From the NCBI GenBank assembly GCA_963921825.1, contig OY997590.1, forward strand, positions 56,782,012 to 56,846,011: a stretch of 64,000 nt of DNA, read 5' to 3'. The position numbers were made by a program, and so were the translations under genes. Below are positions 36,558 through 60,231 of the stretch, piece after piece. Numbering within the stretch: position 1 is the stretch's first letter; each line of letters begins with the position of its first letter. Under the pieces are notes generated by a model that worked only from the letters and a program-made list of their open reading frames with translations, did no database searches and was not told where the DNA came from. This DNA comes from Erodium maritimum (taxonomy: Eukaryota; Streptophyta; Magnoliopsida; Geraniales; Geraniaceae).

Positions 36558-38245
36558 TGTTGGGTCTCGAGGTAGGGTTGGAGATGAACCAACTCGCAGC
36601 GGAAAATCAATGAAAACCAAGATTTAATTAAAACCATGAAACAACTAACAAAGAATGGATTAACAAGAGAAAAATTCAGCACTAGTTCTTACCAAAACAA
36701 GAACACCGGTTAACGAATGATTGACTTGAGTCTCCAAGACGCCTACGTATCCACATGGGAATCAAAGCCACGTAGTTCTTCTCTTTGAGGACTCAAGAAC
36801 ACAAACATGGAGGTGGAAACTAGCCAAACCCGAAATGGCCATGGAAGAGGGAGAGAAAATGTGTTTCCTATTCTTGTCTTGTGTTTGTTATGTTGAAAAA
36901 AGATGACTTAAACATAACAAAATCCATACTTGTCCAACTAAAGGCATGAGACAAGTATGGTGTCAAGTAAGGTGTAAATAGGACAAAGTATGGCAAGACA
37001 AGATTGGGTTAGGTGGTGAATCACCAACACCTTAATCCTTTTCTTGCTTACTTAGTACTAATTAATCAAGACTTGATTAATTAGTTCCATGGGCCTTGGT
37101 TGCATGGGCCTTTCATGGGCCTCTTGGAACATGGCCCGTGGCCATTTCCAACGAGGTCCCGTTTTTCGCTCATCGGCTCCATGCCTTCCATACCGGAAAT
37201 GTCCAACATTATCCGACGCGATCAATCCCAAGACTCCAAGCCTTGTCTCGATCTGTGAAGTCCTATTCACTTACGGGCACATGACCCAAAACCCAGTTTT
37301 GGTCATGTCCCGAGACAACTCCCTTTTGGCCATTCTCCATAAATGTGTCAATGAGTTTCATCCTCCGGTGTGAGCCTTAGGTTTATGCATGTCAATAGAT
37401 CAACGTAAAATCCCATTTTACTTGATCCTATTTAAGTGGCAACTAACGAGACTTTAGTATTGCCTGACACTACATAACGAATCGACCCTGTCGATTCTAA
37501 CCTTTCCGTCGTCCCTGTCATTATCCTTTTATCTCCGATATCCTGATTGAGATAAGGCATAGAGCCGTCATCCTTATTATTCTCAATCACCGTTCCTTGA
37601 TATGTGAGATGACTGAAGATATGATACCCAGTATCATGTGCATGGCCATGCTATTCTTCCAGTCACTCTCGATCAAGTGGCCGAGAACTGATATCTTTCC
37701 CATACCTTAGTATGAGGGATAAATCCCTTAGCCGTCTTTCGTGTCACTCATGTAGCCCGTCCCCAAGCCAATCCTGGCTGTTATGGAAGCCCTGTTACGG
37801 AAAACGTTAGGCGCAGGTCAAACTCAGTTGTTGACTACATAGCGATCACAAAGACTCCTTGGTCTAAGCATACATGACAAGCTACAACACTGAATATATT
37901 CATGACTTAATCTATGGCACATATTCAGGGCGGGTCTTCCAATATCATGTCCCACATGATATCTATGATCAGACTCCGGAATCCCATTCCAATGACTAAC
38001 AGAACGTAAGCCATAAAGAGCCATCTTTCATACTAGTCGCTTCTAGTGAAGCTTTGTTGACTAGGGACCCATCGAGTGTGATCTATCTCGATCTATGGTT
38101 CTATTCGCATGGTGGGCATAGATCAGAGCACACATCGATATATTACTCCAACACATAAGTAATATAAAGCCGCTTTAATTCTATTGCTAACGATGATATA
38201 TACATTTGGACATTTATGATTGAGCTACGGGCACTAAGACTAACA
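36558..38245 (-). repeat. 3' LTR of copia copy 1
   Basis: 1688 bp. On the minus strand it starts TGTTAGTCTTAGTGCCC and ends CTCGAGACCCAACA. It contains a near-perfect palindrome, TAATTAATCAAG/CTTGATTAATTA, at about 37060-37085. Small open frames inside it recur in every LTR copy and are not genes. Confidence 0.93.
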
Positions 38246-38258
38246 ATCTCTCACTTGC
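38246..38258 (-). other. Polypurine tract of copia copy 1
   Basis: The minus strand reads GCAAGTGAGAGAT directly before the 3' LTR, close to the usual copia tract AAGTGGGAGAT seen in copy 2 (53453-53465). Confidence 0.8.
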
Positions 38259-38396
38259 CCTAGTTCTAATCTAAACTCCAATATGTCCCCATCGACTTTA
38301 CATGTCTAACATGTTCAGGCAGTGACACTGCCTTAGTCAAAGGGTTGGCTATGTTATCATCTGTTGCAATATCGGTTATCTTCACTTCACCTCAGT

Positions 38397-38900
38397 TCAG
38401 TATTTATCTGATGAGGTGGATATGCCGCAGTACATGTTTGGATTTGTTATACGATCTAGGCTTTTAGCTTGCGCAATGGCCCTTGTGTTGTCGCAAGATG
38501 GATTCACCGGGCTGGATGGGTTTTTAATTACACCCAGCCCTGCCATGAATTTCCAAATCCACATAGCCTCCTTAGCTGCCTCTGCAGCATCCATGTACTT
38601 GGCCTTTATCGTAGATTCGGCAATGATATCTTGCTTTACGCTCTCCCAGCTAAAGCTCTGCCATTCAGCGTAAACACATATCCTGATTGACTTCTAAAGT
38701 CATCTGGATTTGTCTTGGAAAACTAGCGTCTACTCATCCTTCGACGACTAGTTCAGCATCATCTTTCCCCCGGGTTAGAATGATGTCTACTGGTACAACA
38801 TAAGGCTTACGAGACGTCTGGTCTCATACATGTCATGGCATATATGATCGATCCTGCCCCCAGGCGCATAGGATTCTCATCATCCTTGTCAGCTCATCAG
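38397..38900 (-). pseudogene. RNase H region of copia copy 1
   Basis: The minus-strand frame 38594-38397 reads AAKEAMWIWKFMAGLG and CDNTRAIAQAK, the C-terminal RNase H pattern of copia pol. Further upstream, in broken frames, the stretch corresponding to the end of RT is present. Stops and a deletion junction near 38930 break it from the rest of pol. Confidence 0.8.
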
Positions 38901-39035
38901 GTGTCTTAGGACACTGAGTCTTGGAGGTGGAAGATTGATCCTTTCAAATCGCCTTGGACCTTCCGGAATTGTAACAGGAATTGGTTCTTACTCTACGACA
39001 ATCTCTGTCTCCTTTCTACTAGGTTGCCAATTGGT

Positions 39036-40272
39036 TTAGACAGATCTGTACCATCCTGAATTTCTTCGAGATGCACAGTCCTCCCAATGACGTCTTTGGA
39101 AACAAAACTTCTTTTCCATAAAGACCCCACCCCAAGCGACGAACACCATGTTCTCACTGGGATTGTAGAAATAGTATCCCCTTGTTGCTTTGGGATACCA
39201 CACGAAGGTGCATATCTCAGATCTTGGTTCGAGCTTAGTCGAAACCAAATGTTTCACATAAGCCTCGCAACCACAAATCTTTAGGAAGGACAAAGCGGGC
39301 ATCATCCCGTACCATTTTTAAAATGGTGTCCCTTCCACACCATTCGTCGAAGCCCGATTCACTATGAATGCGGTCGCCTCTAGAGCAAAACCCCTAAAAG
39401 AGATTGGGAGATCAGTCCAACTAATCATGGAACAGACCATTGTCTAACAATGTCCGATTTCTCCGTTTGGCTACACCTTTCAACTACAGTGACCTAGGAG
39501 GAGTCCATTCCAAAAGGATCCCATTCTCTTTTAGATGATCTAATAACTCTGTGGTCAAGTATTTTCCACCTCGATCCAATTGAAGTGCCTTAATACCTTT
39601 GTCGAGCTGGTTTTCTACTATAGTCTTAAACTCTTTGAATTTATCAAAAGCTTCAGACTTATGTCTCACCGAATAGACATAACCATATTTACTGTAATCA
39701 TCAGTAAATGTGATAAAGTAGCTAAAACCCCTCCTGGCAAGTGAACTTATTGGTCTACACACATTCGAGTGTATCAGCCCCAATAATTCACCCGCCCTTT
39801 CATTGCGATCGATAAAGGGCACTTTAGTCATTTTGCCCATCAAACAAACCTTGCACCTATCGATCGAATGGAATTCGAATGAACCTGAAAGCCCGCACTT
39901 CTGAAGTGTTGATAGGCGCTTCTTGTTTATGCGACCCAAATGACAGTACCATAACACAGTTAGGTTTAAATCGTTGGATTTAGACCTCTTGGTATTAACG
40001 GAATATATAGAACTTGAGGCATTGTTACCCATATCTAATATGTACAATCCTCCAACCATGTCAGTACTGGTATAAAACATATCATTGCATAGAACATTGA
40101 AAACTCCATTTCCAATATTAACATTATATCCTTCCTTGTCAAACACGGATACAGATATAATATTCCTACTAAAAGTAGGTATGCAATATACATTATACAA
40201 TACTAAGACAAGGCCTCTTGGCAAAGCAAGACTCATGGATCCTACAGTAGTTGCCACAACTCTGAGGTCCAT
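39036..40272 (-). pseudogene. Pre-integrase and integrase region of copia copy 1, catalytic residues changed
   Basis: The frame 40272-39484 contains the GAG-pre-integrase zinc motif (LWYCHLG with CKVCLMGK), then the integrase core: HSNVCRPI where copia normally has HTDV (Asp to Asn, codon 39763-39765), a FITFTDDYSKYGY stretch, and LDRGGKYL with the second Asp kept. A TAG follows at 39484-39486. Just beyond it the third catalytic Glu is Lys (AAA, 39466-39468, in VAKRRNRTLL). The downstream frame 39305-39036 has FLKICGCEAYVKHL and GYYFYNPSENMVFVA. Integrase is therefore inactive by three independent lesions. Confidence 0.85.
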
Positions 40273-40901
40273 TTCGTGCTTTCCAAATCTCTCCTACTTT
40301 CAGCTACCATATATTAGTGCATGTGTGAGATTCAGTCATGGTATCTAATACCCATGAATCTTTGGAAGTAGAGAGATGTATCTCTATAGAGTTAATACCG
40401 AATGAAGGCACGATCCCACCGCCCTTCCTTAGATCATCCAGGTTTCCTTATGAAGGCGCAGTCCTACTGCCCTTCTTCAGATCATCCAGGCTATTTGATG
40501 AAGGCGCAGTCCCACTGCCCTTCTTCAGATCAGCCGTGAACTTCCTGTAATCCCGGTTCCAATGACCAGGCTGTTGGCAGTAGAAGCAGACATTCTCAGG
40601 TGTCTCATCTTTCCTGCCAAGTGCGCATGGGCCCAGCCCTTGCCACTTCCAATTCCCTTGTTGACCATCAGAATATCCTTGGATCCCAGATCCCTGAGAT
40701 ATTCTTCTCAGCAGCTGATGACACTTCATGTAACTCTGATATGGTCTTAGAGACAGCCTTGTCAAGGACATATTCTTTGCGTTCAGACTTGAGGACTATC
40801 CTCAAAATTCTGTACCAGTCCAAATAGTTTGTCCCATTTAGCTTGACCCTGTCAAGAATGGTTTTTAATGACAAACTATTAATGTTCGCTGAATTTTCCA
40901 T
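40273..40901 (-). pseudogene. gag and protease start of copia copy 1
   Basis: The ATG at 40901 opens a 77-codon frame (LNGTNYLDWYRILRIVLK), the copia Gag N-terminus, ended by a stop. The next frame has a zinc knuckle CFYCQQPGHWNRDY whose last Cys is Tyr (TAC, 40547-40549), then repeated DLKKGSGTAPSS-like units. It continues with WVLDTM, where the protease active site should be DTG (ATG codon 40337-40339). A frameshift separates this from the pre-integrase frame. Confidence 0.85.
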
Positions 40902-42443
40902 TTGATCTATAACAGATAAAATTCAATCAGTAAACTGAATAAATTTTATGAAGATCAAGCTTAAACACCAACAATCAATTCTAAACCTTTAGAATCTGAA
41001 ACCAAGATCCTTGATTCACTCGATTAAGCTGAACTAATGCTCACCACTTAATCGAGCTATGTAGGTAGGACTCCATCCAATCACATCCAATGTGACTCTT
41101 GGCTAGGGTATGTACTTATGTACACGACTTACCCTATCTGTTACCCTAGCTCAACCTCAGGCCGAGAATCGTAGTCGGGTCCACCAATTTTCAACTATGG
41201 CTCGTCACTATGTAGGTGCTCCGCTAATGCGCACGACACCCACATATGTCGTCCAAACCTACTACCCCGCTTCCCCATGGATGCTCCGCTAATGCGCACG
41301 ACAACCATAGGACGGGGAGGTAGTAAGGTGTTGATGATTGGGAGGTATCGGACATGACCCGCTTTTACTTGTCCAGTTGTGTTCAAAACTTTGGCACATC
41401 CTAGATGCGATGAGCACATCAACTACATTCCAAATGCAATGATGCCTCAAATTACATCCAATGTAATTCTTCCTTTGAACCCGTCAACTACATCCAATGC
41501 AATGACGGTTCTAAGGGGTCACACACAAGGATTAAAAGTCCAATTTTATCTTTGCATGTGAGGTGATATGCTCGGTAAATAAAGTTAAGCATGCAATTCT
41601 AAAACACATAGAATTAATCATGCATAAACTAAACCAAGCATAAAGCGATAAATGTGCACATAATAGCCCCCTAAACTAACTCCCACTAGCTTCTTGAGCT
41701 CCACCGACTCCAAGCCGATGCCAACACCCGAAAAGCCACCAAATGACCTTTTCGCCCTTTCTTCGTCTTGAGTAAAATATTACAATTTAATACACGACTC
41801 GCAGGTCGGGAATAAATAAATATTACAAACAAGTGGTTCGACGACCACACCTTGAAAGAATAATTACACGTTAACTCTAACGGCTCGCAGGCCGTGAAAA
41901 GCGATAAATAATTAAATTGAGCTCGGGGCTATTATGTACACCATGCCAACATCACATCACACATCGTGTTATCAAACAAGCATGTTATCAAACATCATGT
42001 GATTTTCCGGTTTTAATTAATAGCCAAGTTTCGAAATTTTTTGATGCTCGGTTTATCGAAACCGTTCAAAAATGAAACTTTTGAACATTTGATCTTCGAG
42101 TTCATCATGACGGTTCCAAACTCGTCATAACTAACAAAACGGTTTAGCCTTGGCATATCAACCATCCAATGGTCATGCTTGGCCTAGCTCCGTCCAACGG
42201 AGCCCCGTTCGGTCCCGGTTTCGGCTCCCCGAGAGTCCCGCTCCCGAGACCCGAAAAATCAAATTTTTTTCAAAATTTCCAGATTTGAAATAATTTTCAA
42301 AAATTCATTTTACATGCATTAAATCCATAAACAATAATTTAAAACATGTTATCAAACAATTTAGCAAAACAACATGCCAAAAACGAAACTTTCAAGCAAA
42401 CCGAAACTTTGAACACCGTCTTGTGAATCCCGAAGGTAGCACG
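40902..42443 (-). other. Long untranslated leader of copia copy 1
   Basis: About 1.54 kb between the primer site and the gag ATG without a coding frame. It has direct repeats such as GCTCCGCTAATGCGCACGAC at about 41218 and 41282, and several ACATCCAATG words. The same leader is present in copy 2, so it is a family trait. Confidence 0.7.
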
Positions 42444-42455
42444 GCTCTGATACCA
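42444..42455 (-). other. Primer binding site of copia copy 1, tRNA-iMet type
   Basis: The minus strand reads TGGTATCAGAGC one base after the 5' LTR. Confidence 0.93.
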
Positions 42456-42456
42456 C

Positions 42457-44144
42457 TGTTGGGTCTCGAGGTAGGGTTGGAGATGAACCAACTCGCAGCG
42501 GAAAATCAATGAAAACCAAGAGACAATTAAAACCATGAAACAACTAAAAAAGAATGGATTAACAAGAGAAAAATTCAGCACTAGTTCTTACCAAAACAAG
42601 AACACCGGTTAACGAATGATTGGCTTGAGTCTCCAAGACGCATACGTATCCACATGGGAATCAAAGCCACGTAGTTCTTCTCTTTGAGGACTCAAGAACA
42701 CAAACATGGAGGTGGAAACTAGCCAAACCCGAAATGGCCATGGAAAAGGGAGAGAAAATGTGTTTCCTATTCTTGTCTTGTGTTTGTTATGTTGAAAAAA
42801 GATGACTTAAACATAACAAAACCCATACTTGTCCAACTAAAGGCATGAGACAAGTATGGTGTCAAGTAAGGTGTAAATAGGACAAAGTATGGCAAGACAA
42901 GATTGGGTTAGGTGGTGAATCACCAACACCTTAATCCTTGTCTTGCTTACTTAGTACTAATTAATCAAGACTTGATTAATTAGTTCCATGGGCCTTGGTT
43001 GCATGGGCCTTTCATGGGCCTCTTGGAACATGGCCCGTGGCCATTTCCAACGAGGTCCCGTTTTTCGCTCATCGGCTCCATGCCTTCCATACCGGAAATG
43101 TCCAACATTATCCGACGCGATCAATCCCAAGACTCCAAGCCTTGTCTCGATCTGTGAAGTCCTATTCACTTACGGGCACATGACCCAAAACCCAGTTTTG
43201 GTCATGTCCCGAGACAACTCCCTTTTGGCCATTCTCCATAAATGTGTCAATGAGTTTCATCCTCCGGTGTGAGCCTTAGGTTTATGCATGTCAATAGATC
43301 AACGTAAAATCCCATTTTACTTGATCCTATTTAAGTGGCAACTAACGAGACTTTAGTATTGCCTGACACTACATAACGAATCGACCCTGTCGATTCTAAC
43401 CTTTCCGTCGTCCCTGTCATTATCCTTTTATCTCCGATATCCTGATTGAGATAAGGCATAGAGCCGTCATCCTTATTATTCTCAATCACCGTTCCTTGAT
43501 ATGTGAGATGACTGAAGATATGATACCCAGTATCATGTGCATGGCCATGCTATTCTTCCAGTCACTCTCGATCAAGTGGCCGAGAACCGATATCTTTCTC
43601 ATACCTTAGTATGAGGGATAAATCCCTTAGCCGTCTTTCGTGTCACTCATGTAGCCCGTCCCCAAGCCAATCCTGGCCGTTATGGAAGCCCTGTTACGGA
43701 CAACGTTAGGCTCAGGTCAAACTCAGTTGTTGACTATATAGCGATCACAAAGACTCCTTGGTCTAAGGATACATGACAAGCTACAACACTGAATATATTC
43801 ATGACTTAATCTATGGCACATATTCAGGGCGGGTCGTCCAATATCATGTCCCACATGATATCTATGATCAGACTCCGGAATCCCATTCCAATGACTAACA
43901 GAACGTAAGCCATAAAGAGGCATCTTTCATACTAGTCGCTTCTAGTGAAGCTTTGTTGACTAGGGACCCATCGAGTGTGATCTATCTCGATCTATGGTTC
44001 TATTCGCATGGTGGGCATAGATCAGAGCACACATCGATATATTACTCCAACACATAAGTAATATAAAGCCGCTTTAATTTTATTGCTAACGATGATATAT
44101 ACATTTGAACATTTAGGATTGAACTACGGGCACTAAGACTAACA
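42457..44144 (-). repeat. 5' LTR of copia copy 1
   Basis: 1688 bp, direct copy of 36558-38245, followed by TSD TCCTC at 44145-44149. Confidence 0.93.
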
Positions 44145-44169
44145 TCCTCATTCTCCTCATCCTCCCGTA

Positions 44170-45983: not shown

Positions 45984-47670
45984 TGTTAGGTCTCGAGGTA
46001 GGGTTGGAGATGAACCAACTCGCAGCGGAAAATCAAGGAAAACCAAGAGACGATTAAAACCATGAAACAACTAACAAAGAATGGATTCACAAGAGAAAAA
46101 TTCAGCACTAGTTCTTACCAAAACAAGAACACCGGGTAACGAATGATTGGCTTGAGTCTCCAAGACGCCTACGTATCCACATGGGAATCAAAGCCACGTA
46201 GTTCTTCTCTTTGAGGACTCAAGAACACAAACATGGAGGTGGAAACTAGCCAAACCCGAAATGGCCATGGAAGAGGGAGAGAAAATGTGTTTCCTATTCT
46301 TGTCTTGTGTTTGTTATGTTGAAAAAAGATGACTTAAACATAACAAAACCCATACTTGTCCAACTAAAGGCATGGGACAAGTATGGTGTCAAGTAAGGTG
46401 TAAATAGGACAAAGTATGGCAAGACAAGATTGGGTTAGGTGGTGAATCACCAACACCTTAATCCTTGTCTTGCATACTTAGTACTAATTAATCAAGACTT
46501 GATTAATTAGTTCCATGGGCCTTGGTTGCATGGGCCTTTCGTGGGCCTCTTGGAACATGGCACGTGGCCATTTCCAACAGGTCCCGTGATTCGCTCATCG
46601 CCTCCATGCCTTCCATACCGGAAATGTCCAACATTATCCGACGCGATCAATCCCAAGACTCCAAGCCTTGTCTCGATCCGTAAAGTCCTATTCACTTACG
46701 GGCACATGATCCAAAACCCAGTTTTGGTCATGTCCCGAGACAACTCCCTTTTGGCCATTCTCCATAAATGTGTCAATGAGTTTCATCCTCCGGTGTGAGC
46801 CTTAGGTTTATGCATGTCAATAGATCAACGTAAAATCCCATTTTACTTGATCCTATTTAAGTGGCAACTAACGAGACTTTAGTATTGCCTGACACTACAT
46901 AACGAATCGACCCTGTCGATTCTAACCTTTCCGTCGTCCCTGTCATTATCCTTTTATCTCCGATATCCTGATTGAGATAAGGCATAGAGCCGTCATCCTT
47001 ATTATTCTCAATCACCGTTCCTTGATATGTGAGATGACTGAAGATATGATACCCAGTATCATGTGCATGGCCATGCTATTCTTTCAATCACTCTCGATCA
47101 AGCGGCCGAGAACCGATATCTTTCCCATACCTCAGTATGAGGGATAAATCCCTTAGCCGCCTTTCGTGTCACTCATGTAGCCCGTCCCCAAGCCAATCCT
47201 GGCCGTTATGGAAGCCCTGTTACGGACAACGTTAGGCTCAGGTCAAACTCAGTTGTTGACTACATAGCGATCACAAAGACTCCTTGGTCTAAGGATACAT
47301 GACAAGCTACAACACTGAATATGTTCATGACTTAATCTATGGCACATATTCAGGGCGGGTCGTCCAATATCATGTTCCACATGATATCTATGATCAGACT
47401 CCGGAATCCCATTCCAATGACTAACAGAACGTAAGCCATAAAGAGCCATCTTTCATACTAGTCGCTTCTAGTGAAGCTTTGTTGACTAGGGACCCATCGA
47501 GTGTGATCTATCTCGATCTATGGTTCTATTCGCATGGTGGGCATAGATCAGAGCACACATCGATATATTACTCCAACACATAAGTAATATAAAGCAGCTT
47601 TAATTCTATTGCTAACGATGATATATACATTTGGACATTTATGATTGAGCTACGGGCACTAAGACTAACA
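45984..47670 (-). mobile_element. Solo LTR of the 1688-bp copia family, TSD GGGCA
   Basis: 1687 bp with ends TGTTAGG and CTAAGACTAACA (plus strand), same orientation as copies 1 and 2. It is flanked by GGGCA at 45979-45983 and 47671-47675. It is a product of intra-element LTR recombination. Confidence 0.93.
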
Positions 47671-47703
47671 GGGCATCCCTACACAGAGGCCATAAGTGAC
47701 CAC
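47671..47703. other. 33-bp spacer between two inverted LTRs
   Basis: Unique sequence that includes the right GGGCA duplication. It is the loop of a very large inverted repeat. Confidence 0.85.
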
Positions 47704-49390
47704 TGTTAGTCTTAGTGCCCGTAGTTCAATCCTAAATGTCCAAATGTATATATCATCGTTAGCAATAAAATTAAAGCGGCTTTATATTACTTATGTGTTG
47801 GAGTAATATATCGATGTGTGCTCTGATCTATGACCACCATGCGAATAGAACCATAGATCGAGATAGATCACACTCGATGGGTCCCTAGTCAACAAAGCTT
47901 CACTAGAAGCGACTAGTATGAAAGATGGCTCTTTAAGGCTTACGTTCTGTTAGTCATTGGAATGGGATTCCGGAGTCTGATCATAGATATCATGTGAGAT
48001 ATGATATTGGACGACCCGCCCTGAATATGTGCCATAGATTAAGTCATGAACATATTCAGTGTCGTAGCTTGTCATGTATCCTTAGACCAAGGAGTCTTTG
48101 TGATCGCTATGTAGTCAACAACTTAGTTTGACCTGAGCCTAACGTTGTCCGTAACAGGGTTTCCATAACGGCCAGGATTGGCTTGGGGACGGGCTACATG
48201 AGTGACACGAAAGACGGCTAAGGGATTTATCCCTCATACTGAGGTATGGGAAAGATATCGGTTCTCGGCCGCTTGATCGAGAGTGATTGAAATAATAACA
48301 TGGTCATGCACATGATACCGCGTATCATATCTTCAGTCATCTCACATATCAAGGAACAGTGATTGAGAATAATAAGGATGACGACTCTATGCCTTATCTC
48401 AATCAGGATATCGGAGATAAAAGGATAATTATAGGGACGACGGAAAGGTTAGAATCGACAAGGTCGATTCGCTATGCAGTGTCAGGCAATACTAAAGTCT
48501 CGTTAGTTGCCACTTAAATAGGATCAATTAAAATGGGATTTTACATTGATCTATTGACATGCATAAACCTAAGGGTCACACCGGAGGATGAAACTCATTG
48601 ACACATTTATGGAGAACGGCCAAAAGGGAGTTTTCTCGGGACATGACCAAAACTAGGTTTTGGGTCATGTGCCCGTAAGTGAATAGGACTTTACGGATCG
48701 AGACAAGGCTTGGAGTCTTGGGATTGATCGCGTCGGATAATGTTGGACATTTTCGGTATGGAAGGCTTGGAGGCGATGAGCGAATCACGGGACCTCGTTG
48801 GAAATGGCCACGGGCCATGTTCCAAGAGGCCCATGAAAGGCCCATGCAACCAAGGCCCATGAGACTAATTAATCAAGTCTTGATTAATTAGTACTAAGTA
48901 AGCAAGACAAGGATTAAGGTGTTGGTGATTCACCACCTAACCCAATCTTGTCTTGCCATACTTTGTCCTATTTACACCTTACTTGTCACCATGCTTGTCC
49001 TATTCCTTTAGTTGGACAAGTGTGGGGTTTGTTATGTTTAAGTCATCTTTTTTCAACATAACAAACACAAGACAAGAATAGGAAACACATTTTCTCTCCC
49101 TCTTCCATGACCATTTCGGGTTTGGCTAGTTTTCACCTCCATTTTTGTGTTCTTGAGTTCTCAAAGAGAAGAACTATGTGGCTTTGATTCCCATGTGGAT
49201 ACGTAGGCGTCTTGGAGACTCAAGCCAATCATTTGTTAACCGGTGTTCTTTTTTTGGTAAGAAATAATGCTAAATTTTTATCTTGTGAATCCATTCTTTG
49301 TTAGTTGTTTCATGGTTTAATCGTCTCTTGGTTTTCATTGATTTTCCGCTGCGAGTTGGTTCATCTCCAACCATACCTCGAGACCCAGCA
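47704..49390 (+). mobile_element. LTR of the same copia family in opposite orientation, no TSD
   Basis: It starts TGTTAGTCTTAGTGCCCGTA and ends CTCGAGACCCAGCA. It is full length (1687 bp) but more diverged than the other copies (for example near 48970-49010 and 49245-49280). The flanks ACCAC and GACAT do not match, so it is either an old solo LTR with an altered flank or a product of recombination between elements. No primer site or coding sequence is attached. Confidence 0.85.
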
Positions 49391-49844
49391 GACATGCACC
49401 ATAACCTCGATGTCGGAACTTGGATCAAGCGGAGAGCGACGACGCTGGTGGCAGTGAAGAAAGTGGCAACGTCGAAGGAGCCGGTGGCGACACAGGAGGT
49501 GGAGGCAGAAGCGGCGAATGAGGCAGAAGCGGCGGCGCTAGTGGTACACCTTGGGCCCTCAACAGATCCAAAAACTTATGGCGAAAGCGGTGACGCTGGT
49601 GGCGGCTGGTTAATCGTTGGAGGAGAAGGCGGAGGAGGTGGTCTAGATCGCTAGCGGTAGTGGGAGAACGAAAAGCCTTTGATCTTTTCCATCAGTCGTT
49701 CCAAGAGGGGATCTGGAGTAGAGACGGTGCCCGTGAAGGAGGTGGAGAAAGTGATGGTAGTAGTGGTGATGGAGTAGCGGTAGATGGTCGGGATGGTACC
49801 CATGATCGGTGATATCTCCATGAAGAGCTAGGGCCAACTAAAAG
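49391..49844. other. Short GC-rich segment, unassigned
   Basis: It is rich in GGCGACG/GGTGGC words, with open frames on both strands and an Ala/Glu-rich plus-strand translation but no domain. It may belong to the host sequence into which the LTRs inserted. Confidence 0.35.
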
Positions 49845-50859
49845 TGTTATATTCTAGGGTGCAAAAACGCAACGGAAATTAAAAAATTTCTCTAGAAAAA
49901 CCTCTGGATCGATGTAATTCTAAGTAAACTAAAAAACGAAATGTTCAAGGAGATTACCTCTTGATATTGAGCCTGGTTCGAGACAGGGACCAAGAATGTT
50001 TCTACTAATTAACTATGTTGAGACGTCTCCAAAAGAATTTGTCCTCTACTGGTATCCACACCAAGCGTTCCTAAAATTAGTTATGTGGAAGAACTCTTCT
50101 TCTTTCTCTCTCGTTTTATTCTTCTCAACCTTGAGAGCAAATATTACTTCTCTCTAGTTTTGCATGCTCATAATTCCCAAAACTGACCACGCCATCTTGC
50201 ATTTTGAAAAACCAACACATGGGCTTCCAAAATTGACAAATGGAGACATTTTAGGAATAGTGGACATGCAAAAATAACCTCTTTGAATTTATGAAATTCA
50301 AGAGTCATTTTTTAATATAAATTGCCTAACATAATCTCATTATATTAGCAATTAAAAACGAGTAATGAATAAATAAATATTATTTTATTTTATTCACTTA
50401 ATGGAGTTCCAAGGTACGATTTGATCTTGGGTTTGTTGTTGTGTGTGACCTTGTAGGCTCATACAACGTTTGGCCGATGCTCCTTAAATTTAAATAATTT
50501 CACTTATTTATTTATCTCCATTAGATCTAAAATCTTTGTTTTGTTCACATGTCATAGTTTTCTTATAGCAAGGTATTATGACTACCCAAACGTGTATGAT
50601 GATCGTCAATCCGAAATAACCTTTTACTGTCAATATCTTAATCCCTTTGTCATCGATATCTGGATCGAATTGAAGGCATAAGATCGTCATCCTTACTTTA
50701 TTTGATCGCCGTCTCTTGATCTTAAGTAGATTGCTAGTGTTAACTCATTATCGATTTGCATGGTCATGTATTTTCGCAATCTCACTTATCAAGGGGCCCA
50801 AACGATATCTGCTCATATTTACATGAGGGACAAATCCCTTGTCAGGCACAAAACTAACA
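49845..50859 (-). repeat. 3' LTR of the third copia element
   Basis: 1015 bp with TG...CA ends, followed by ACCTCCCACTTG, the reverse complement of a copia polypurine tract. It is unrelated in sequence to the 1688-bp LTR. Confidence 0.8.
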
Positions 50860-50871
50860 ACCTCCCACTTG

Positions 50872-51764
50872 CACAAGGTCCAATCTACTTTACAAGTAAT
50901 GTCCATAGATCTAACATGACCCTCATGTATAGGCTGTGAAAGCGCCTTGGTTAAAGGATCAAAAAAATTATCACCTATGGTTACTTTCCATATCTTCACG
51001 TCTCCTCTCTCAACGATTTCTTGAATAAGATGGTAACGCCTTAGGATGTGTTTAGATCTCTAGTGCGATCTTGGCTCCTTGTCCTGTGCTATCGCCCTAT
51101 TGTTATCACAGTACAAGTTCATTGGATCTGATATACTAGGAATGACTTTAAGACGGTTATGAGTTTCTTTATCCTAACAACTTCTTTAGCTACACCAGAT
51201 GTAGCTATATACTCAGCTTTTGTTGTAGAATCAGCAACAATCTCTTTCTTTGAGCTTCTCCAGCTAAACGCACCTCCATTAAAAAAAACACATAACCAAA
51301 CTATGATCTAAAATCATCTATGTTTGTTTGGAAGCTAGCATATGTGTAACCATTTACAACTAGTTCATCTCCCTAACTAACATACAGTAAAAAGGCATCC
51401 TTAGTCCTCTCAAGTATTTAAGGATGGTTTTAACTACCGTCTAATGACCTTCACTTGATCCGCCTCGTACCTTCTTATTGCACTTAATGCATACGAGACA
51501 TCAGGTCTAGTACACAACATCGCGTACATGATAGATCCAATGGCAGATGCATATGAGGTCTTACTCATACGGTCTCGCTCATCTTGTGTCATAGGACACT
51601 CAATCTTGCTGAGACTTATGCCATGAGACATTGAAAAAAAATCCTCTTTTAGAATCATGCATACTAATCCTTGATAACACCTTATCAATGTAAGTGCTCT
51701 AACTTAGGCGTATAAGCTTTCTAGATCTAACCTTATAGATTTTGTTACCAAATATATATGCAAC
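50872..51764 (-). pseudogene. RT C-terminus and RNase H of the third copia element
   Basis: The minus-strand frame 51688-51434 reads MSHGISLSKIECPMT and SAIGSIMYAMLCTRPDVSYAL, the conserved copia RT/RNase H junction. The frame 50999-50748 reads DNFFDPLTKALSQPIHEGH, the pol C-terminus. Several stops and frameshifts separate them. Inactive. Confidence 0.8.
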
Positions 51765-53452
51765 TGTTGGGTCTCGAGGTAGGGTTGGAGATGAACCAAC
51801 TCGCAGCGGAAAATCGATGAAAACCAAGAGACGATTAAAACCATGAAACAACTAACAAAGAATGGATTCACAAGAGAAAAATTCAGCACTAGTTCTTACC
51901 AAAACAAGAACACCGGTTAACGAATGATTGGCTTGAGTCTCCAAGACGCCTACGTATCCACATGGGAATCAAAGCCACGTAGTTCTTCTCTTTGAGGACT
52001 CAAGAACACAAACATGGAGGTGGAAACTAGCCAAACCCGAAATGGCCATGGAAGAGGGAGAGAAAATGTGTTTCCTATTCTTGTCTTGTGTTTGTTATGT
52101 TGAAAAAAGATGACTTAAACATAACAAAACCCATACTTGTCCAACTAAAGGCATGGGACAAGTATGGTGTCAAGTAAGGTGTAAATAGGACAAAGTATGG
52201 CAAGACAAGATTGGGTTAGGTGGTGAATCACCAACACCTTAATCCTTGTCTTGCTTACTTAGTACTAATTAATCAAGACTTGATTAATTAGTTCCATGGG
52301 CCTTGGTTGCATGGGCCTTTCATGGGCCTCTTGGAACATGGCCCGTGGCCATTTCCAACGAGGTCCCGTGATTCGCTCATCGCCTCCAAGCCTTCCATAC
52401 CGGAAATGTCCAACATTATCCGACGCGATCAATCCCAAGACTCCAAGCCTTGTCTCGATCCGTAAAGTCCTATTCACTTACGGGCACATGACCCAAAACC
52501 CAATTTTGGTCATGTCCCGAGACAACTCCCTTTTGGCCATTCTCCATAAATGTGTCAATGAGTTTCATCCTCCGGTGTGACCCTTAGGTTTATGCATGTC
52601 AATAGATCAACATAAAATCCCATTTTACTTGATCCTATTTAAGTGGCAACTAACGAGACTTTAGTATTGCCCGACATTACATAACGAATCGACCCTGTCG
52701 ATTCTAACCTTTCCGTCGTCCCTGTCATTATCCTTTTATCTCCGATATCCTGATTGAGATAAGGCATAGAGCCGTCATCCTTATTATTCTCAATCACCGT
52801 TCCTTGATATGTGAGATGACTGAAGATATGATACCCAGTATCATGTGCATGGCCATGCTATTCTTCCAGTCACTCTCGATCAAGTGGCCGAGAACCGATA
52901 TCTTTCCCATACCTTAGTATGAGGGATAAATCCCTTAGCCGTCTTTCGTGTCACTCATGTAGCCCGTCCCCAAGCCAATCCTGGCCGTTATAGAAGCCCT
53001 GTTACGGACAACGTTAGGCTCAGGTCAAACTCAGTTGTTGACTACATAGCGATCACAAAGACTCCTTGGTCTAAGGATACATGACAAGCTACAACACTGA
53101 ATATGTTCATGACTTAATCTATGGCACATATTCAGGGCGGGTCGTCCAATATCATGTCCCACATGATATCTATGATCAGACTCCGGAATCCCATTCCAAT
53201 GACTAACAGAACGTAAGCCATAAAGAGCCATCTTTCATACTAGTCGCTTCTAGTGAAGCTTTGTTGACTAGGGACCCATCGAGTGTGATCTATCTCGATC
53301 TATGGTTCTATTCGCATGGTGGGCATAGATCAGAGCACACATCGATATATTACTCCAACACATAAGTAATATAAAGCCGCTTTAATTTTATTGCTAACGA
53401 TGATATATACATTTGGACATTTAGGATTGAACTACGGGCACTAAGACTAACA
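51765..53452 (-). repeat. 3' LTR of copia copy 2
   Basis: 1688 bp, one difference from 58539-60226. Confidence 0.95.
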
Positions 53453-53603
53453 ATCTCCCACTTGCCCTAGTTCCAATCTAAACTCCAATATGTCCCCATC
53501 GACTTTACATGTCTAACATGTTCAGGCAGTGACACTGCCTTAGTCAAAGGGTTGGCTATGTTATCATCTATTGCAATATCGGTTATCTTCACTTCACCTC
53601 AGT

Positions 53604-54120
53604 TCAGTATTTATCTGATGAGGTGGATACGCCGCAGTACATGTTTGGATTTGTTATGCGATCTAGGCTTTTAGCTTGCGCAATGGCCCTTGTGTTGTCG
53701 CAAAATGGATTCACCGGACTGGATGGGTTTTTAATTACACCCAGCCCTGCCATGAATTTCCAAATCCACATAGCCTCCTTAGCTGCCTCTGCAGCATCCA
53801 TGTACTTGGCCTCTATCGTAGATTCGGCAATGGTATCTTGTTTTACGCTTTCCCAGCTAAAGCTCTGCCATTCAGCGTAAACACATATCCTGATTGACTT
53901 CTAAAGTCATCTGGATTTGTCTTGGAAAACTAGCGTCTACTCATCCTTCGACGACTAGTTCAGCATCATCTTTCCCCCAGGTTAGAATGATGTCTACTGG
54001 TACAACATAAGGCTTACGAGACGTCTGGTCTCATACATGTCATGGCATATATGATCGATCCTGCCCCCAGGCGCATAGGATTCTCATCATCCTTTTCATC
54101 TCATCAGGTGTCTTAGGACA
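53604..54120 (-). pseudogene. RNase H region of copia copy 2
   Basis: The frame 53801-53604 encodes AAKEAMWIWKFMAGLG and CDNTRAIAQAK, as in copy 1. Upstream the RT-to-RNase H junction is present in broken frames. Premature stops are shared with copy 1. Confidence 0.8.
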
Positions 54121-55026
54121 CTAAGTCTTGCTGAGATGAATGCCATGACTAGTGGGTAAGAGTCCTTTCTTTGAATCGAGCATTAAGAACCTACTCAATG
54201 CCTTGTTCACATAGGTTCCCTGACTTAAATCCAAGACCCTCTTGGTGCGATCTCTACATATCTTAATCCTTAAGATATGAGAAGCATCGCCTAAGTCCTT
54301 TATTGAAAAACACTTCCTCAACCAAGCTTTAGTCTCGTGCAAGGTTGGGATGTCGTTTTCAATGAGAACCAGAAAGGTAATATTGCTCCCACTAGCCTTC
54401 TTATAAACGCAAGATTCATCCTCGTTCTTGATTAAGCCAAATCCAATTACAGCTTCATCAAAACAAAGGATCCAACTCCGAGAAGTTCGTTTCAATCCAT
54501 AAATGGATTTCAACAACTTATAAATCTTTCCCTTATTCTTCGGATCGTCAAAACCTTTGGGCCGAGACATACAAACGTACTCAGTCAAATTTCCATTTAG
54601 GAAAGCGGTTTTGACATCCACTTGCCATATCTCGTAATTATGATACGCAGTTATGTCAAGAAGAATTTGGATCGATTTTGACCATAGCCACTAAGGAGAA
54701 GGTTTCCTCATAGTCAATCCATTGGATCTGCCTATAACCTTTCGCCACAATTGAGCTTTGTAGGTCAGAGGGTTGCCGTCCATGTCCATCTTCACCTTGA
54801 AGATCCATTTGCATCCTATGGTCCTCACACCATTGATGGGATCAACCGGTTCCCAGACTCGGTTGTCCGACATGGATTGCATTTCCTCCCTCATGGCTCC
54901 CAGCCATAACTCGGAGTTGGGCCCATCCACGACTTCCTGAAAGGTGGCTGGATCATCGTGATCCACCATGACTTCATTGTCACCTCCGGATACCATATCT
55001 TGGAGGTGGAAGATTGATCCTTTCAA
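54121..55026 (-). pseudogene. Reverse transcriptase of copia copy 2, YVDD motif missing
   Basis: The frame 55026-54691 carries the N-terminal RT region (GCKWIFKVKMDMDGN). After a stop, frame 54621-54121 carries DVKTAFLNGNL and KSIYGLKRTSRSW. It then reads FLVLIENDIPTL where copia RT has FLVL, YVDD and the following residues before the ND stretch: an in-frame loss of about 21 bases at about 54360 removes the catalytic YVDD box. The rest (CFSIKDLGDASHIL) is intact. Polymerase activity is impossible. Copy 1 lacks this whole region. Confidence 0.88.
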
Positions 55027-55114
55027 ATCGCCTTGGACCTTCCGGAATTGTAACAGGAATTGGTTCTTACTCTACGACAATCTCTGGCTCCTTTCTACTG
55101 GGTTGCCAATTGGT

Positions 55115-56352
55115 TTAGACAGATCTGTCCCATCCTGAATTTCTTCGAGATGCACAGTCCTCCCAATGACGTCTTTGGAAACAAAACTTCTTTTCCATAA
55201 AGACCCCACCCCAAGCGACGAACACCATGTTCTCACTGGGATTGTAGAAATAGTATCCCCTTGTTGCTTTGGGATACCACACGAAGGTGCATATCTCAGA
55301 TCTTGGTTCGAGCTTAGTCGAAACCAAATGTTTCACATAAGCCTCGCAACCACAAATCTTTAGGAAGGACAAAGCGGGCATCATCCCGTACCATTTTTTA
55401 AAATGGTGTCCCTTCCACACCATTCGTCGAAGCCCGATTCACTATGAATGCGGTCGTCTATAGAGCAAAACCCCTAAAAGAGATTGGGAGATCAGTCCAA
55501 CTAATCATGGAACAGACCATTGTCTAACAATGTCCGATTTCTCCGTTTGGCTACACCTTTCAACTACAGTGACCTAGGAGGAGTCCATTCCAAAAGGATC
55601 CCATTCTCTTTTAGATGATCTAATAACTCTGTGGTCAAGTATTTTCCACCTCGATCCAATCGAAGTGCCTTAATACCTTTGTCGAGCTGGTTTTCTACTA
55701 TAGTCTTAAACTCTTTGAATTTATCAAAAGCTTCAGACTTATGTCTCACCGAATAGACATAACCATATTTACTGTAATAATCAGTAAATGTGATAAAGTA
55801 GCTAAAACCCCTCCTGGCAAGTGAACTTATTGGTCTACACACATTCGAGTGTATCAGCCCCAATAATTCACCCGCCCTTTCATCGCGATCGATAAAGGGC
55901 ACTTTAGTCATTTTTCCCATCAAACAAACCTTGCACCTATCGATCGAATGGAATTCGAATGAACCTGAAAGCCCGCACTTCTGAAGTGCTGATAGGCGCT
56001 TCTTGTTTATGCGACCCAAATGACAGTACCATAACAGAGTTAGGTTTAAATCGTTGGATTTAGACCTCTTGGTATTAACGGAATATATAGAACTTGAGGC
56101 ATTGTTACCCATATCTAATATGTACAATCCTCCAACCATGTCAGTACTGGTATAAAACATATCATTGCATAGAACATTGAAAACTCCATTTCCAATATTA
56201 ACATTATATCCTTCCTTGTCAAACACGGATACAGATATAATATTCCTACTAAGAGTAGGTATGCAATATACATTATACAATACTAAGACAAGGCCTCTTG
56301 GCAAAGCAAGACTCATGGATCCTACAGCAGTTGCCACAACTCTGAGGTCCAT
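55115..56352 (-). pseudogene. Pre-integrase and integrase region of copia copy 2
   Basis: Same layout and lesions as copy 1: HSNVCRPI (Asn at 55843-55845), LDRGGKYL kept, TAG at 55564-55566, VAKRRNRT with Lys at 55546-55548. Frame 55423-55115 carries the downstream FLKICGCEAYVKHL and GYYFYNPSENMVFVA. A TDYYS variant (second Asp of TDDYS lost) is private to this copy. Confidence 0.85.
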
Positions 56353-56981
56353 TTCGTGCTTTCCAAATCTCTCCTACTTTCAGCCACCATATATTAGTGC
56401 ATGTGTGAGATTCAGTCATGGTATCTAATACCCATGAATCTTTGGAAGTAGAGAGATGTAGCTCTATAGAGTTAATACCGAATGAAGGCACGGTCCCACC
56501 GCCCTTCCTTAGATCATCCAGGTTTCCTGATGAAGGCGCAGTCCTACTGCCCTTCTTCAGATCATCCAGGCTATTTGATGAAGGCGCAGTCCCACTGCCC
56601 TTCTTCAGATCAGCCGTGAACTTCCTGTAATCCCGGTTCCAATGACCAGGCTGTTGGCAGTAGAAGCAGACATTCTCAGGTGTCTCATCTTTCCTGCCAA
56701 GTGCGCATGGGCCCAGCCCTTGCCACTTCCAATTCCCTTGTTGACCATCAGAATATCCTTGGATCCCAGATCCCTGAGATATTCTTCTCAGCACTTAATG
56801 ACAGTTCATGTAACTCTGATATGGTCTTAGAGACAGCCTTGTCAAGGACATATTCTTTGCGTTCAGACTTGAGGACTATCCTCAAAATTCTGTACCAGTC
56901 CAAATAGTTTGTCCCATTTAGCTTGACCCTGTCAAGAATGGTTTTTAATGACAAACTATTAATGTTCGCTGAATTTGCCAT
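56353..56981 (-). pseudogene. gag and protease start of copia copy 2
   Basis: The ATG at 56981 opens a 77-codon Gag start as in copy 1. The second frame (56794-56273) has CFYCQQPGHWNRDY with the terminal Cys replaced by Tyr (56627-56629). Three 16-residue repeats of the type DLKKGSGTAPSSNSLD follow, then WVLDTM (Met at 56417-56419) in place of the protease DTG. A frameshift leads into the integrase frame. Confidence 0.85.
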
Positions 56982-58525
56982 TTGATCTACAACAGATAAA
57001 ATTCAATCAGTAAACTGAATAAATTTTATGAAGATCAAGCTTAAACACCAACAATCAATTCTAAACCTTTAGAATCTGAAACCAAGATCCTTGATTCACT
57101 CGATTAAGCTGAACTAATGCTCACCACTTAATCGAGCTATGTAGGTAGGACTCCATCCAATCACATCCAATGTGACTCCTGGCTAGGGTATGTACTTATG
57201 TACACGACTTACCCTATCTGTTACCCTAGCTCAACCTCAGGCTGAGAATCGTAGTCGGGTCCACCAATTTTCAACTATGGCTCGTCACTATGTAGGTGCT
57301 CCGCTAATGCGCACGACACCCACATATGTCGTCCAAACCTACTACCCCGCTTTCCCATGGATGCTCCGCTAATGCGCACGACACCCATAGGACGGGGAGG
57401 TAGTAAGGTGTTGATGATTGGGAGGTATCGGACATGACCCGCTTTTACTTGTCCAGTTGTGTTCAAAACTTTGGCACATCCTAGATGCGATGAGCACATC
57501 AACTACATTCCAAATGCAATGATGCCTCAAATTACATCCAATGTAATTCTTCCTTTGAACCCGTCAACTACATCCAATGCAATGACGGTTCTAAGGGTTC
57601 ACACACAAGGATTAAAATTCCAATTTTATCTTTGCATGTGAGGTGATATGCTCGGTAAATAAAGTTAAGCATGCAATTCTAAAGCACATAGAATTAATCA
57701 TGCATAAACTAAACCAAGCATAAAGCGATAAATGTGCACATAATAGCCCCCTAAACTAACTCCCACAAGCTTCTTGAGCTCCACCGACTCCAAGCCGATG
57801 CCAACACCCGAAAAGCCACCAAATGACCTTTTCGCCCTTTCTTCGTCTTGAGTAAAATATTACAATTTAATACACGACTCGCAGGTCGGGAATAAATAAA
57901 TATTACAAACAAGTGGTTCGACGACCACACCTTGAAATAATAATTACACGCTAACTCTAACGGCTCGCAGACCGTGAAAAGCGATAAATAATTAAATCGA
58001 GCTCGGGGCTATTATGTACACCATGCCAACATCACATCACACATCGTGTTATCAAACAAGCATGTTATCAAACATCATGTGATTTTCCGGTTTTAATTAA
58101 TAGCCAAGTTTCGAAATTTTTTGATGCTCGGTTTATCGAAACCGTTCAAAAATGAAACTTTTGAACATTTGATCTTCGAGTTCGTCATGACGGTTCCAAA
58201 CTCGTCATAACTAACAAAACGGTTTAGCCTTGGCATATCAACCATCCAATGGTCATGCTTGGCCTAGCTCCGTCCAACGGAGCCCCGTTCGGTCCCGGTT
58301 TCGGCTCCCCGAGAGTCCCGCTCCCGAGACCCGAAAAATCAAAAAAAAATTCAAAATTTCCAGATTTGAAATAATTTTCAAAAATTCATTTTACATGCAT
58401 TAAATCCATAAACAATAATTTAAAACATGTTATCAAACAATTTAGCAAAACAACATGCCAAAACCGAAACTTTCAAGCAAAACCGAAACTTTGAACACCG
58501 TCTTGTGAATCCCGAAGGTAGCACG
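56982..58525 (-). other. Long untranslated leader of copia copy 2
   Basis: Non-coding, collinear with 40902-42443 of copy 1 and nearly identical to it, including the repeated GCTCCGCTAATGCGCACGAC. Confidence 0.7.
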
Positions 58526-58537
58526 GCTCTGATACCA
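58526..58537 (-). other. Primer binding site of copia copy 2, tRNA-iMet type
   Basis: The minus strand reads TGGTATCAGAGC one base after the 5' LTR at 58539. Confidence 0.93.
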
Positions 58538-58538
58538 C

Positions 58539-60226
58539 TGTTGGGTCTCGAGGTAGGGTTGGAGATGAACCAACTCGCAGCGGAAAATCGATGAAAACCA
58601 AGAGACGATTAAAACCATGAAACAACTAACAAAGAATGGATTCACAAGAGAAAAATTCAGCACTAGTTCTTACCAAAACAAGAACACCGGTTAACGAATG
58701 ATTGGCTTGAGTCTCCAAGACGCCTACGTATCCACATGGGAATCAAAGCCACGTAGTTCTTCTCTTTGAGGACTCAAGAACACAAACATGGAGGTGGAAA
58801 CTAGCCAAACCCGAAATGGCCATGGAAGAGGGAGAGAAAATGTGTTTCCTATTCTTGTCTTGTGTTTGTTATGTTGAAAAAAGATGACTTAAACATAACA
58901 AAACCCATACTTGTCCAACTAAAGGCATGGGACAAGTATGGTGTCAAGTAAGGTGTAAATAGGACAAAGTATGGCAAGACAAGATTGGGTTAGGTGGTGA
59001 ATCACCAACACCTTAATCCTTGTCTTGCTTACTTAGTACTAATTAATCAAGACTTGATTAATTAGTTCCATGGGCCTTGGTTGCATGGGCCTTTCATGGG
59101 CCTCTTGGAACATGGCCCGTGGCCATTTCCAACGAGGTCCCGTGATTCGCTCATCGCCTCCAAGCCTTCCATACCGGAAATGTCCAACATTATCCGACGC
59201 GATCAATCCCAAGACTCCAAGCCTTGTCTCGATCCGTAAAGTCCTATTCACTTACGGGCACATGACCCAAAACCCAATTTTGGTCATGTCCCGAGACAAC
59301 TCCCTTTTGGCCATTCTCCATAAATGTGTCAATGAGTTTCATCCTCCGGTGTGACCCTTAGGTTTATGCATGTCAATAGATCAACATAAAATCCCATTTT
59401 ACTTGATCCTATTTAAGTGGCAACTAACGAGACTTTAGTATTGCCCGACATTACATAACGAATCGACCCTGTCGATTCTAACCTTTCCGTCGTCCCTGTC
59501 ATTATCCTTTTATCTCCGATATCCTGATTGAGATAAGGCATAGAGCCGTCATCCTTATTATTCTCAATCACCGTTCCTTGATATGTGAGATGACTGAAGA
59601 TATGATACCCAGTATCATGTGCATGGCCATGCTATTCTTCCAGTCACTCTCGATCAAGTGGCCGAGAACCGATATCTTTCCCATACCTTAGTATGAGGGA
59701 TAAATCCCTTAGCCGTCTTTCGTGTCACTCATGTAGCCCGTCCCCAAGCCAATCCTGGCCGTTATAGAAGCCCTGTTACGGACAACGTTAGGCTCAGGTC
59801 AAACTCAGTTGTTGACTACATAGCGATCACAAAGACTCCTTGGTCTAAGGATACATGACAAGCTACAACACTGAATATGTTCATGACTTAATCTATGGCA
59901 CATATTCAGGGCGGGTCGTCCAATATCATGTCCCACATGATATCTATGATCAGACTCCGGAATCCCATTCCAATGACTAACAGAACGTAAGCCATAAAGA
60001 GCCATCTTTCATACTAGTCGCTTCTAGTGAAGCTTTGTTGACTAGGGACCCATCGAGTGTGATCTATCTCGATCTATGGTTCTATTCGCATGGTGGGCAT
60101 AGATCAGAGCACACATCGATATATTACTCCAACACATAAGTAATATAAAGCCGCTTTGATTTTATTGCTAACGATGATATATACATTTGGACATTTAGGA
60201 TTGAACTACGGGCACTAAGACTAACA
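58539..60226 (-). repeat. 5' LTR of copia copy 2
   Basis: 1688 bp, followed by TSD GCAAC (60227-60231). Confidence 0.95.
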
Positions 60227-60231
60227 GCAAC

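What the first reader, a model, noticed from the sequence alone, without database searches (positions are those of the whole stretch)
36558..60226. Two independently inserted copia copies share the same inactivating changes: a trans-mobilised non-autonomous family
Seen: copies 1 and 2 have different target duplications (TCCTC, GCAAC), so they are separate insertions. Both carry protease DTM for DTG, integrase Asn for the first Asp and Lys for Glu, Tyr for the last zinc-knuckle Cys, the same TAG after WTPPRSL, and the same early gag stop. Known: these residues are catalytic or structural in copia proteins. Inference: the lesions were present in the source copy, so the family has been amplified by proteins of another element while keeping intact LTRs, primer site and polypurine tract. 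The long leader may hold the packaging signal.
Basis: partly seen in the sequence, partly recalled or inferred. Interest (0 to 1): 0.8.

Follow-up and report, generated by a model that had tools for sequence, protein, structure and literature searches.

The report
Crippled copia family spread in trans
This is a family of plant jumping elements whose own genes are broken in the same ways from copy to copy, yet which has copied itself around the genome very recently, so it must be borrowing the machinery of another element; this kind of parasitism is known, and this is a clear new example.

Summary
Copies 1 and 2 (minus strand) have different target duplications and share every lesion named. More were found: about 405 bp of Gag core missing, and no RT active site. 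Copy 2's LTRs differ at 1 of 1688 bases, so its lesions predate its insertion.

One answered search of the whole genome (763 Mb) shows the same elsewhere. Eight more full-length copies with LTR pairs differing by 0-4 bases all carry the integrase, RT and RNase H lesions and lack RT active site and Gag core. Of ten further 1.3-kb pieces, seven carry the covered lesion set, one is an older relative, two could not be judged. That older relative already has three of the stops and the RT loss.

A sister element (L038) has Gag core, DTG, integrase triad and YVDD, and shares primer site, polypurine tract, LTR start and leader; its pol is interrupted once. It marks a plausible helper lineage.

Verdict: a trans-mobilised, non-autonomous copia lineage, a new member of a known kind (Dasheng/RIRE2, BARE2, Athila). 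The helper's action is inferred.

The parts
36558..44144 (-). Copy 1, full element, TSD TCCTC on both sides; LTRs 36558-38245 and 42457-44144 differ at 22 of 1688
51765..60226 (-). Copy 2, full element, TSD GCAAC on both sides; LTRs 51765-53452 and 58539-60226 differ at 1 of 1688
58526..58537 (-). Primer binding site TGGTATCAGAGC of copy 2 (copy 1: 42444-42455); complementarity to initiator Met tRNA is recalled
53453..53467 (-). Polypurine tract GGGCAAGTGGGAGAT of copy 2, next to the 3' LTR (copy 1: 38246-38260, one base different)
57003..58538 (-). Long leader of copy 2, 1536 bp (copy 1: 40923-42456, 1534 bp); longest stretch between stops 85 codons, no Rfam match
56751..57002 (-). Gag remnant of copy 2 (copy 1: 40671-40922): N-terminal part joined in frame to the end of the core; about 405 bp of core missing; shared stop after DPRIF
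56627..56629 (-). Zinc-knuckle last Cys replaced by Tyr (copy 1: 40547-40549)
56417..56419 (-). Protease DTM in place of DTG (copy 1: 40337-40339)
55567..56373 (-). Pre-integrase and integrase piece, open 269 codons (copy 1: 39487-40293); varies as unselected sequence across copies
55843..55845 (-). First integrase Asp replaced by Asn (copy 1: 39763-39765)
55564..55566 (-). TAG after WTPPRSL (copy 1: 39484-39486)
55546..55548 (-). Integrase Glu before RRNRT replaced by Lys (copy 1: 39466-39468); that it is the catalytic Glu is recalled
54124..54690 (-). RT piece of copy 2, active-site motif missing (FLVLIENDI near 54361); stop at 54691-54693
54126..54997 (-). 872 bp of RT present in copy 2, absent from copy 1 (junction at 38918), TCTTG microhomology at the ends
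54014..54016 (-). Stop in the RT-RNase H region after MRPDVS, shared with copy 1
45984..47670 (-). Solo LTR A of the same family, TSD GGGCA
47704..49391 (+). Solo-like LTR B of the same family, opposite orientation, older (3.3-4.5% from the others), no clear TSD
50845..51763 (-). 3' part of an older, degraded copia element X interrupted by copy 2 (RT end, RNase H, PPT and LTR start)
60227..61417 (-). 5' side of X's RT (YVDE at the active site) on the other flank of copy 2

Best explanation
A Ty1/copia-type LTR-retrotransposon lineage that lost its Gag core, protease active site, integrase triad and RT active site, but kept LTRs, primer site, polypurine tract and leader. Its RNA is transcribed from its own LTR, packaged into particles made by a related coding element, and copied and integrated by that element's RT and integrase. 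Shown: the lesions predate the recent insertions; the insertions are integrase-type (5-bp TSD, paired LTRs); an older member has part of the lesions; a sister lineage with the motifs present is in the genome. Inferred: that this sister lineage (or close kin) is the helper, that decay was stepwise while the lineage kept spreading, and packaging through the leader.
For: Copy 2: LTRs 1/1688 different, yet all coding domains damaged. Eight more full-length copies: LTR differences 0,0,2,1,2,4,3,1; TSD matching in 7 of 8; knuckle Tyr 8/8, integrase Asn 8/8, TAG 8/8, integrase Lys 8/8, RT stop 8/8, RNase H stop 8/8, protease M 7/8 and R 1/8; RT motif missing 8/8; interiors align to copy 2 end to end without the Gag core. 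Ten further 1.3-kb pieces: 7 with the covered lesion set, L042 an older relative, L046 covering only the knuckle (Tyr), L047 without a match. Copies with 0 LTR differences (L001, L002) differ by 0.49-0.91% inside, so more than one lesioned source was active; L001 and L003 share an extra stop near the RT site. The older member L049 (the locus of L042; 91.0% to copy 2) already has the TAG, the RT stop, the RNase H stop and the RT loss, but not the integrase Lys. Integrase piece across 17 copies: 53 nonsynonymous and 16 synonymous variant codons, 2 of them nonsense, as expected without selection (p 0.42; 2.1 nonsense expected). The sister element in L038 has the gag core (PF14223), DTG, triad, YVDD, the same 12-base primer site and 15-base polypurine tract, LTR start 86% over about 880 bp and leader 77%.
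Against: No RNA, particle or new-insertion data. No uninterrupted coding copy was seen: the one sister copy has a stop in pol and its LTR pair is 98.3% alike over 776 bp, older than the eight defective full-length copies sampled and copy 2. The sister lineage's copy number and age are unknown because the genome search answered only once. The copies sampled come from the 40 scored of 4558 first-look candidates, ranked by likeness to copy 1's LTR; the candidates are not confirmed copies. L049 is a chimera, so recombination could have moved its lesions.
Confidence: 0.88

Rival explanations
1. Local duplication or gene conversion: copies 1 and 2 share lesions because one copied its sequence onto the other.
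For: They lie 7.6 kb apart in a cluster of same-family LTRs. Tandem duplication does occur in this family elsewhere: L004 and its neighbour L037 have 100% identical inserts.
Against: Different TSDs and unlike flanks; differences spread evenly; the same lesions in copies on other contigs, 7 of 8 with their own TSDs.
Confidence: 0.03
2. The copies were intact when they inserted and decayed afterwards; LTR-LTR conversion makes them look young.
For: LTR conversion can erase age. One LTR of copy 1 shares three bases near its end with solo LTR A, against copy 1's other LTR.
Against: The same lesions in 8 of 8 independent full-length copies cannot plausibly arise independently, and all 8 LTR pairs look young. 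The older member shares three stops and the RT loss.
Confidence: 0.03
3. Mobilised by an unrelated copia element rather than by the sister lineage of L038.
For: The primer site and 5-bp TSD are generic to many copia elements (recalled); another related lineage, X, is present.
Against: The sister shares leader (77%), the LTR start (86%) and an identical polypurine tract with the defective lineage, the regions that packaging and integration should read. X is only 65-74% identical to L038 and is itself degraded.
Confidence: 0.15
4. Sources were repeatedly remade by recombination with other elements (template switching), so the family is a moving mosaic rather than one defective lineage.
For: L006 differs by 2.5-3.0% in the zinc knuckle-integrase piece but by 0.6-1.5% in leader and RT-RNase H; L039 is 97.4% to copy 2 in that piece and shares an inserted base with L006; L049 is chimeric.
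Against: The integrase lesions and TAG are kept in all 15 members whose sequence covers them, L006 and L039 included; the other 7 full copies show no such diverged piece.
Confidence: 0.1

Closest known systems
Dasheng and its putative partner RIRE2 (rice)
   Same: A non-autonomous LTR family with a coding partner in the same genome; PMC5473765 (passages) says the two have similar distribution and target sites, that chimeras were observed, and that Dasheng outgrew RIRE2 over the last 0.5 My
   Different: Dasheng is listed among the LARDs in PMC1940013 (passages), which notes high LTR identity within each LARD/partner couple; here the decayed gag-pol is still in place and the candidate partner's LTR matches at about 86% over roughly half its length
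BARE2 on BARE1 (barley, copia)
   Same: A copia parasite of a related copia; PMC3735527 (passages) reports BARE2 RNA in BARE1 particles
   Different: BARE2 is described there as unable to make Gag; here gag, PR, IN, RT and the RNase H region are all damaged
Pol-less Athila families (Arabidopsis)
   Same: Whole families non-autonomous and multiplying for up to 2 My, with recombination between lineages (PMC2410132, passages)
   Different: Some Athila members keep gag/env frames under purifying selection; here the integrase piece shows none
LARD / TRIM non-autonomous LTR elements
   Same: LTRs, primer site and polypurine tract kept without working proteins (recalled)
   Different: LARD interiors are not a decayed gag-pol and TRIMs are very short (recalled); copy 2 is 8.46 kb with recognisable gag-pol pieces

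Membership tests
Ty1/copia LTR retrotransposon | Integrase encoded upstream of RT (order gag-PR-IN-RT-RH) | tested here: met
   Order of pieces in copy 2; Pfam gag_pre-integrs, rve (just below cut-off in copy 2, above it in copy 1) and RVT_2
Ty1/copia LTR retrotransposon | LTRs with TG...CA ends, 5-bp target duplication, primer site and polypurine tract | tested here: met
Trans-mobilised non-autonomous LTR element | Coding defects present in the source before recent insertion | tested here: met
   Copy 2 and 8 of 8 full-length copies with LTR pairs differing by 0-4 bases
Trans-mobilised non-autonomous LTR element | A coding relative sharing cis signals in the same genome | tested here: inconclusive
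   L038 has the motifs, same primer site and polypurine tract, leader 77%, LTR start 86%, but its pol is interrupted; no uninterrupted copy was seen
Trans-mobilised non-autonomous LTR element | Defective RNA carried and copied by the helper's proteins | not testable with these tools
   Needs RNA from particles or new insertions
LARD | Long interior without gag-pol (definition recalled) | tested here: not met
   Recognisable IN and RT pieces
TRIM | Very short element (definition recalled) | tested here: not met
   Copy 2 is 8462 bp
BARE2-type (Gag-only defect) | pol intact | tested here: not met
   PR, IN and RT lesions

The most novel reading that the evidence does not exclude
A copia lineage has gone on amplifying for perhaps two to three and a half million years after losing RT, collecting further knock-outs stepwise while keeping a full-length dead gag-pol. 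Parasitic LTR lineages can then persist without shrinking to LARD or TRIM form, and the dead interior may be kept for a non-coding reason such as packaging length, RNA structure or recombination with the helper.
Probability: 0.3. Interest if true: 0.55.

Novelty: new member of a known kind. Interest (0 to 1): 0.4.

Why it matters
It gives a clean, datable case of retrotransposon parasitism: same lesions, several young insertions, an older member with part of the lesions, and a sister element with the catalytic motifs and the same cis signals in one genome. That makes questions about helper choice, order of decay and competition between parasite and helper countable in one assembly. The principle itself is established.

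Tried and rejected
Purifying selection on the surviving 269-codon integrase piece: not seen (53 N, 16 S; 2 nonsense against 2.1 expected; 4 of 15 fetched copies have indels in it).

Stronger conservation of the leader as a packaging signal: not shown between copies 1 and 2 (19 of 1534 differ, against 21 of 1901 in gag-IN and 15 of 673 in the 3' RNase H part). Known RNA families in 36500-64000: none at gathering score. Tandem arrays: inside the two interiors only a 48-bp repeat between zinc knuckle and protease.

Using X as the helper: rejected, it is degraded and 65-74% from L038. Deamination as the main cause of the lesions: from L038 to copy 2, G>A and C>T exceed the reverse in the coding part (128 to 79 and 72 to 55); in the leader C>T exceeds (29 to 17) but G>A does not (32 to 35). 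The direction is not polarised, so this is left open.

Gag core in the copies: eight relatives were compared by tblastn; there was no convincing match to the core, only one weak stretch over its end in copy 1.

Copy number and age of the sister lineage: not obtained, because the genome search answered once. Protein searches: in the rows listed (120 of 340, 120 of 526, 3 of 3) the best identities were 63% (IN), 71% (RT) and 78% (gag piece, 48% covered), too far to name a helper. Paper searches; five papers were looked at, by passages only.
Full report
What is there. Two LTR retrotransposons lie on the minus strand at 36558-44144 and 51765-60226, each with 1688-bp LTRs, the primer site TGGTATCAGAGC next to the 5' LTR and a polypurine tract next to the 3' LTR. 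Their 5-bp target duplications are TCCTC and GCAAC. Similarity between them ends at the LTR edges. Copy 2 sits inside the RT gene of an older copia element, X, whose halves flank it. Two more LTRs of the family, A and B, lie between them.

Lesions. Against the 120 listed relatives (of 340) the first integrase Asp is kept by 115; the residue before RRNRT is E in 51 and K in 5 of 56 with that motif; the last knuckle Cys is kept in 16 of 16. At 68 integrase columns conserved in relatives, copy 1 departs at 10 and copy 2 at 11, ten of them the same change; 3 and 2 of 120 relatives depart as much or more. At 86 RT columns copy 2 departs at 14, and none of 120 relatives does. Comparison with the sister element shows an in-frame loss of about 405 bp of Gag core, which largely overlaps the stretch of the sister's gag that matches PF14223. 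Copy 2 lacks the RT active-site motif. Copy 1 lacks 872 bp of RT, with TCTTG at both ends.

Timing in the window. Copy 2's LTRs differ at 1 of 1688 sites, about 0.02 My at 1.3e-8 per site per year (rate recalled; 1.5e-8, the rate used in PMC2410132, gives the same order). Copy 1's differ at 22, about 0.5 My. A coding region this damaged between nearly identical LTRs was already dead when it inserted. Differences between the copies are evenly spread, so conversion is not suggested.

The family in the genome. One search of the window's own assembly (763,042,520 bases, 40 contigs) answered: 40 LTR matches were scored of 4558 first-look candidates, all 40 full length at 99-100%. The candidates are not confirmed copies. 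The 40 are copy 1's own two LTRs, 8 pairs and 22 single LTRs. I fetched the 8 pairs and the 22 singles with flanks. Of the 22 singles, 11 are solo and 11 have interior sequence on one side, one of these (L033) judged by a primer site with one base different. Ten of the 11 solos have an exact 5-bp TSD; L011 matches at only 4 bases.

Eight full-length copies with a copy-2-like interior (7 pairs and L020) have LTR differences 0, 0, 2, 1, 2, 4, 3, 1, and 7 of 8 have a matching TSD. All eight have the knuckle Tyr, integrase Asn, TAG, integrase Lys, RT stop and RNase H stop; protease is M in 7 and R in 1. All eight lack the RT motif and the Gag core. The eighth pair, L004, has most of its interior replaced and belongs to a tandem array. 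From the ten other singles with an interior side I took 1.3-kb pieces. Seven show the covered lesion set, L042 is an older relative, L046 covers only the knuckle (Tyr), and L047 gave no match. This sample leans towards copies like copy 1, because that LTR was the query.

Several sources and an older member. L001 and L002 have identical LTR pairs, yet differ by 0.49-0.91% inside, so more than one lesioned source was active; L001 and L003 share an extra stop near the RT site. L006 has a diverged knuckle-integrase piece (2.5-3.0%) in an otherwise ordinary copy, and L039 shares an inserted base with it there: a mosaic, still with the integrase lesions. The older member in L049 (the locus of L042) is 91.0% identical to copy 2 over 2.65 kb, with an LTR 94.0% alike. 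It already has the TAG, the RT stop, the RNase H stop and the RT loss, but keeps the integrase Glu and has a different change at the first Asp. At 1.3e-8 that is roughly 2.3-3.5 My by my own arithmetic, a rough figure, and L049 is a chimera, so recombination could have moved these lesions. Across 17 copies the integrase piece varies as unselected sequence.

A candidate helper lineage. Near L004 lies a related element (L038) with Gag core (PF14223), DTG, the integrase triad and YVDD. It has the same 12-base primer site, the same 15-base polypurine tract, a leader 77.4% identical and an LTR start 86% identical. Its pol is interrupted once, gag and pol lie in different frames, and its LTR pair is 98.3% alike over 776 bp. 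So it shows that a coding sister lineage existed recently, not that this copy works. Codon positions of copy 2 against L038 differ by 0.128-0.173, 0.096-0.129 and about 0.23 at positions 1, 2 and 3 in pol. X against L038 shows 0.145-0.233 at positions 1 and 2 but 0.41-0.58 at position 3. The flatter pattern fits a history partly without constraint.

Mechanism. Most likely the defective RNA is made from its own LTR, packaged by the sister lineage's Gag and copied and integrated by its enzymes. Shown: pre-insertion lesions, integrase-type insertion, presence of a sister element with the motifs and the same signals. Inferred: which helper, stepwise decay during spread, and packaging by the leader, for which there is no sign of special conservation between copies 1 and 2.

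Known background. Dasheng/RIRE2 (PMC5473765 and PMC1940013, passages), BARE2/BARE1 (PMC3735527, passages) and Athila (PMC2410132, passages) are established cases. Oil palm elements with broken frames are also reported (PMC4608283, passages). This is a new member of that kind, with the dead gag-pol kept in place and the order of decay partly visible.

Noticed in passing
window 12037-14346 (minus strand): 382-bp LTR-like repeats (98.7% alike) flank a Ty3-type gag (PF03732) reading frame; primer-site-like sequence and AAAGA on both sides: looks like a gag-only non-autonomous LTR element.
   Followed up: partly
L004 and L037 (G000:C2, about 22.149-22.164 Mb): Tandem LTR-interior-LTR-interior-LTR array; both interiors have lost most of leader to integrase and carry a 100% identical 2.97-kb foreign insert with a short (6-10 bp) duplication at its ends.
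   Followed up: partly
L006 and L039: L006's zinc knuckle-integrase piece is 2.5-3.0% from the other copies while leader and RT-RNase H are 0.6-1.5%; its protease residue differs; L039 (97.4% to copy 2) shares an inserted base with it.
   Followed up: partly
L049: Chimera of a young leader with an older copy of the family, beside a fragment with YVDD of another copia element.
   Followed up: partly
window 57003-58538 against 53453-57002: CpG observed/expected is 1.05 in the leader but 0.59 in the decayed coding part.
   Followed up: no
window 29855-31195 (minus strand): Reading frame with endonuclease (PF03372) and zf-RVT (PF13966) matches, probably a LINE-type remnant.
   Followed up: no
window 10412-11080 (minus strand): Exons of an alpha-glucan phosphorylase; best match in solved structures is 5lr8.
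   Followed up: no
P0243 (108 aa): A gag relative of unnamed source that also jumps from the N-terminal part to AEKNI without a core; may be a deletion or a spliced gene model.
   Followed up: no
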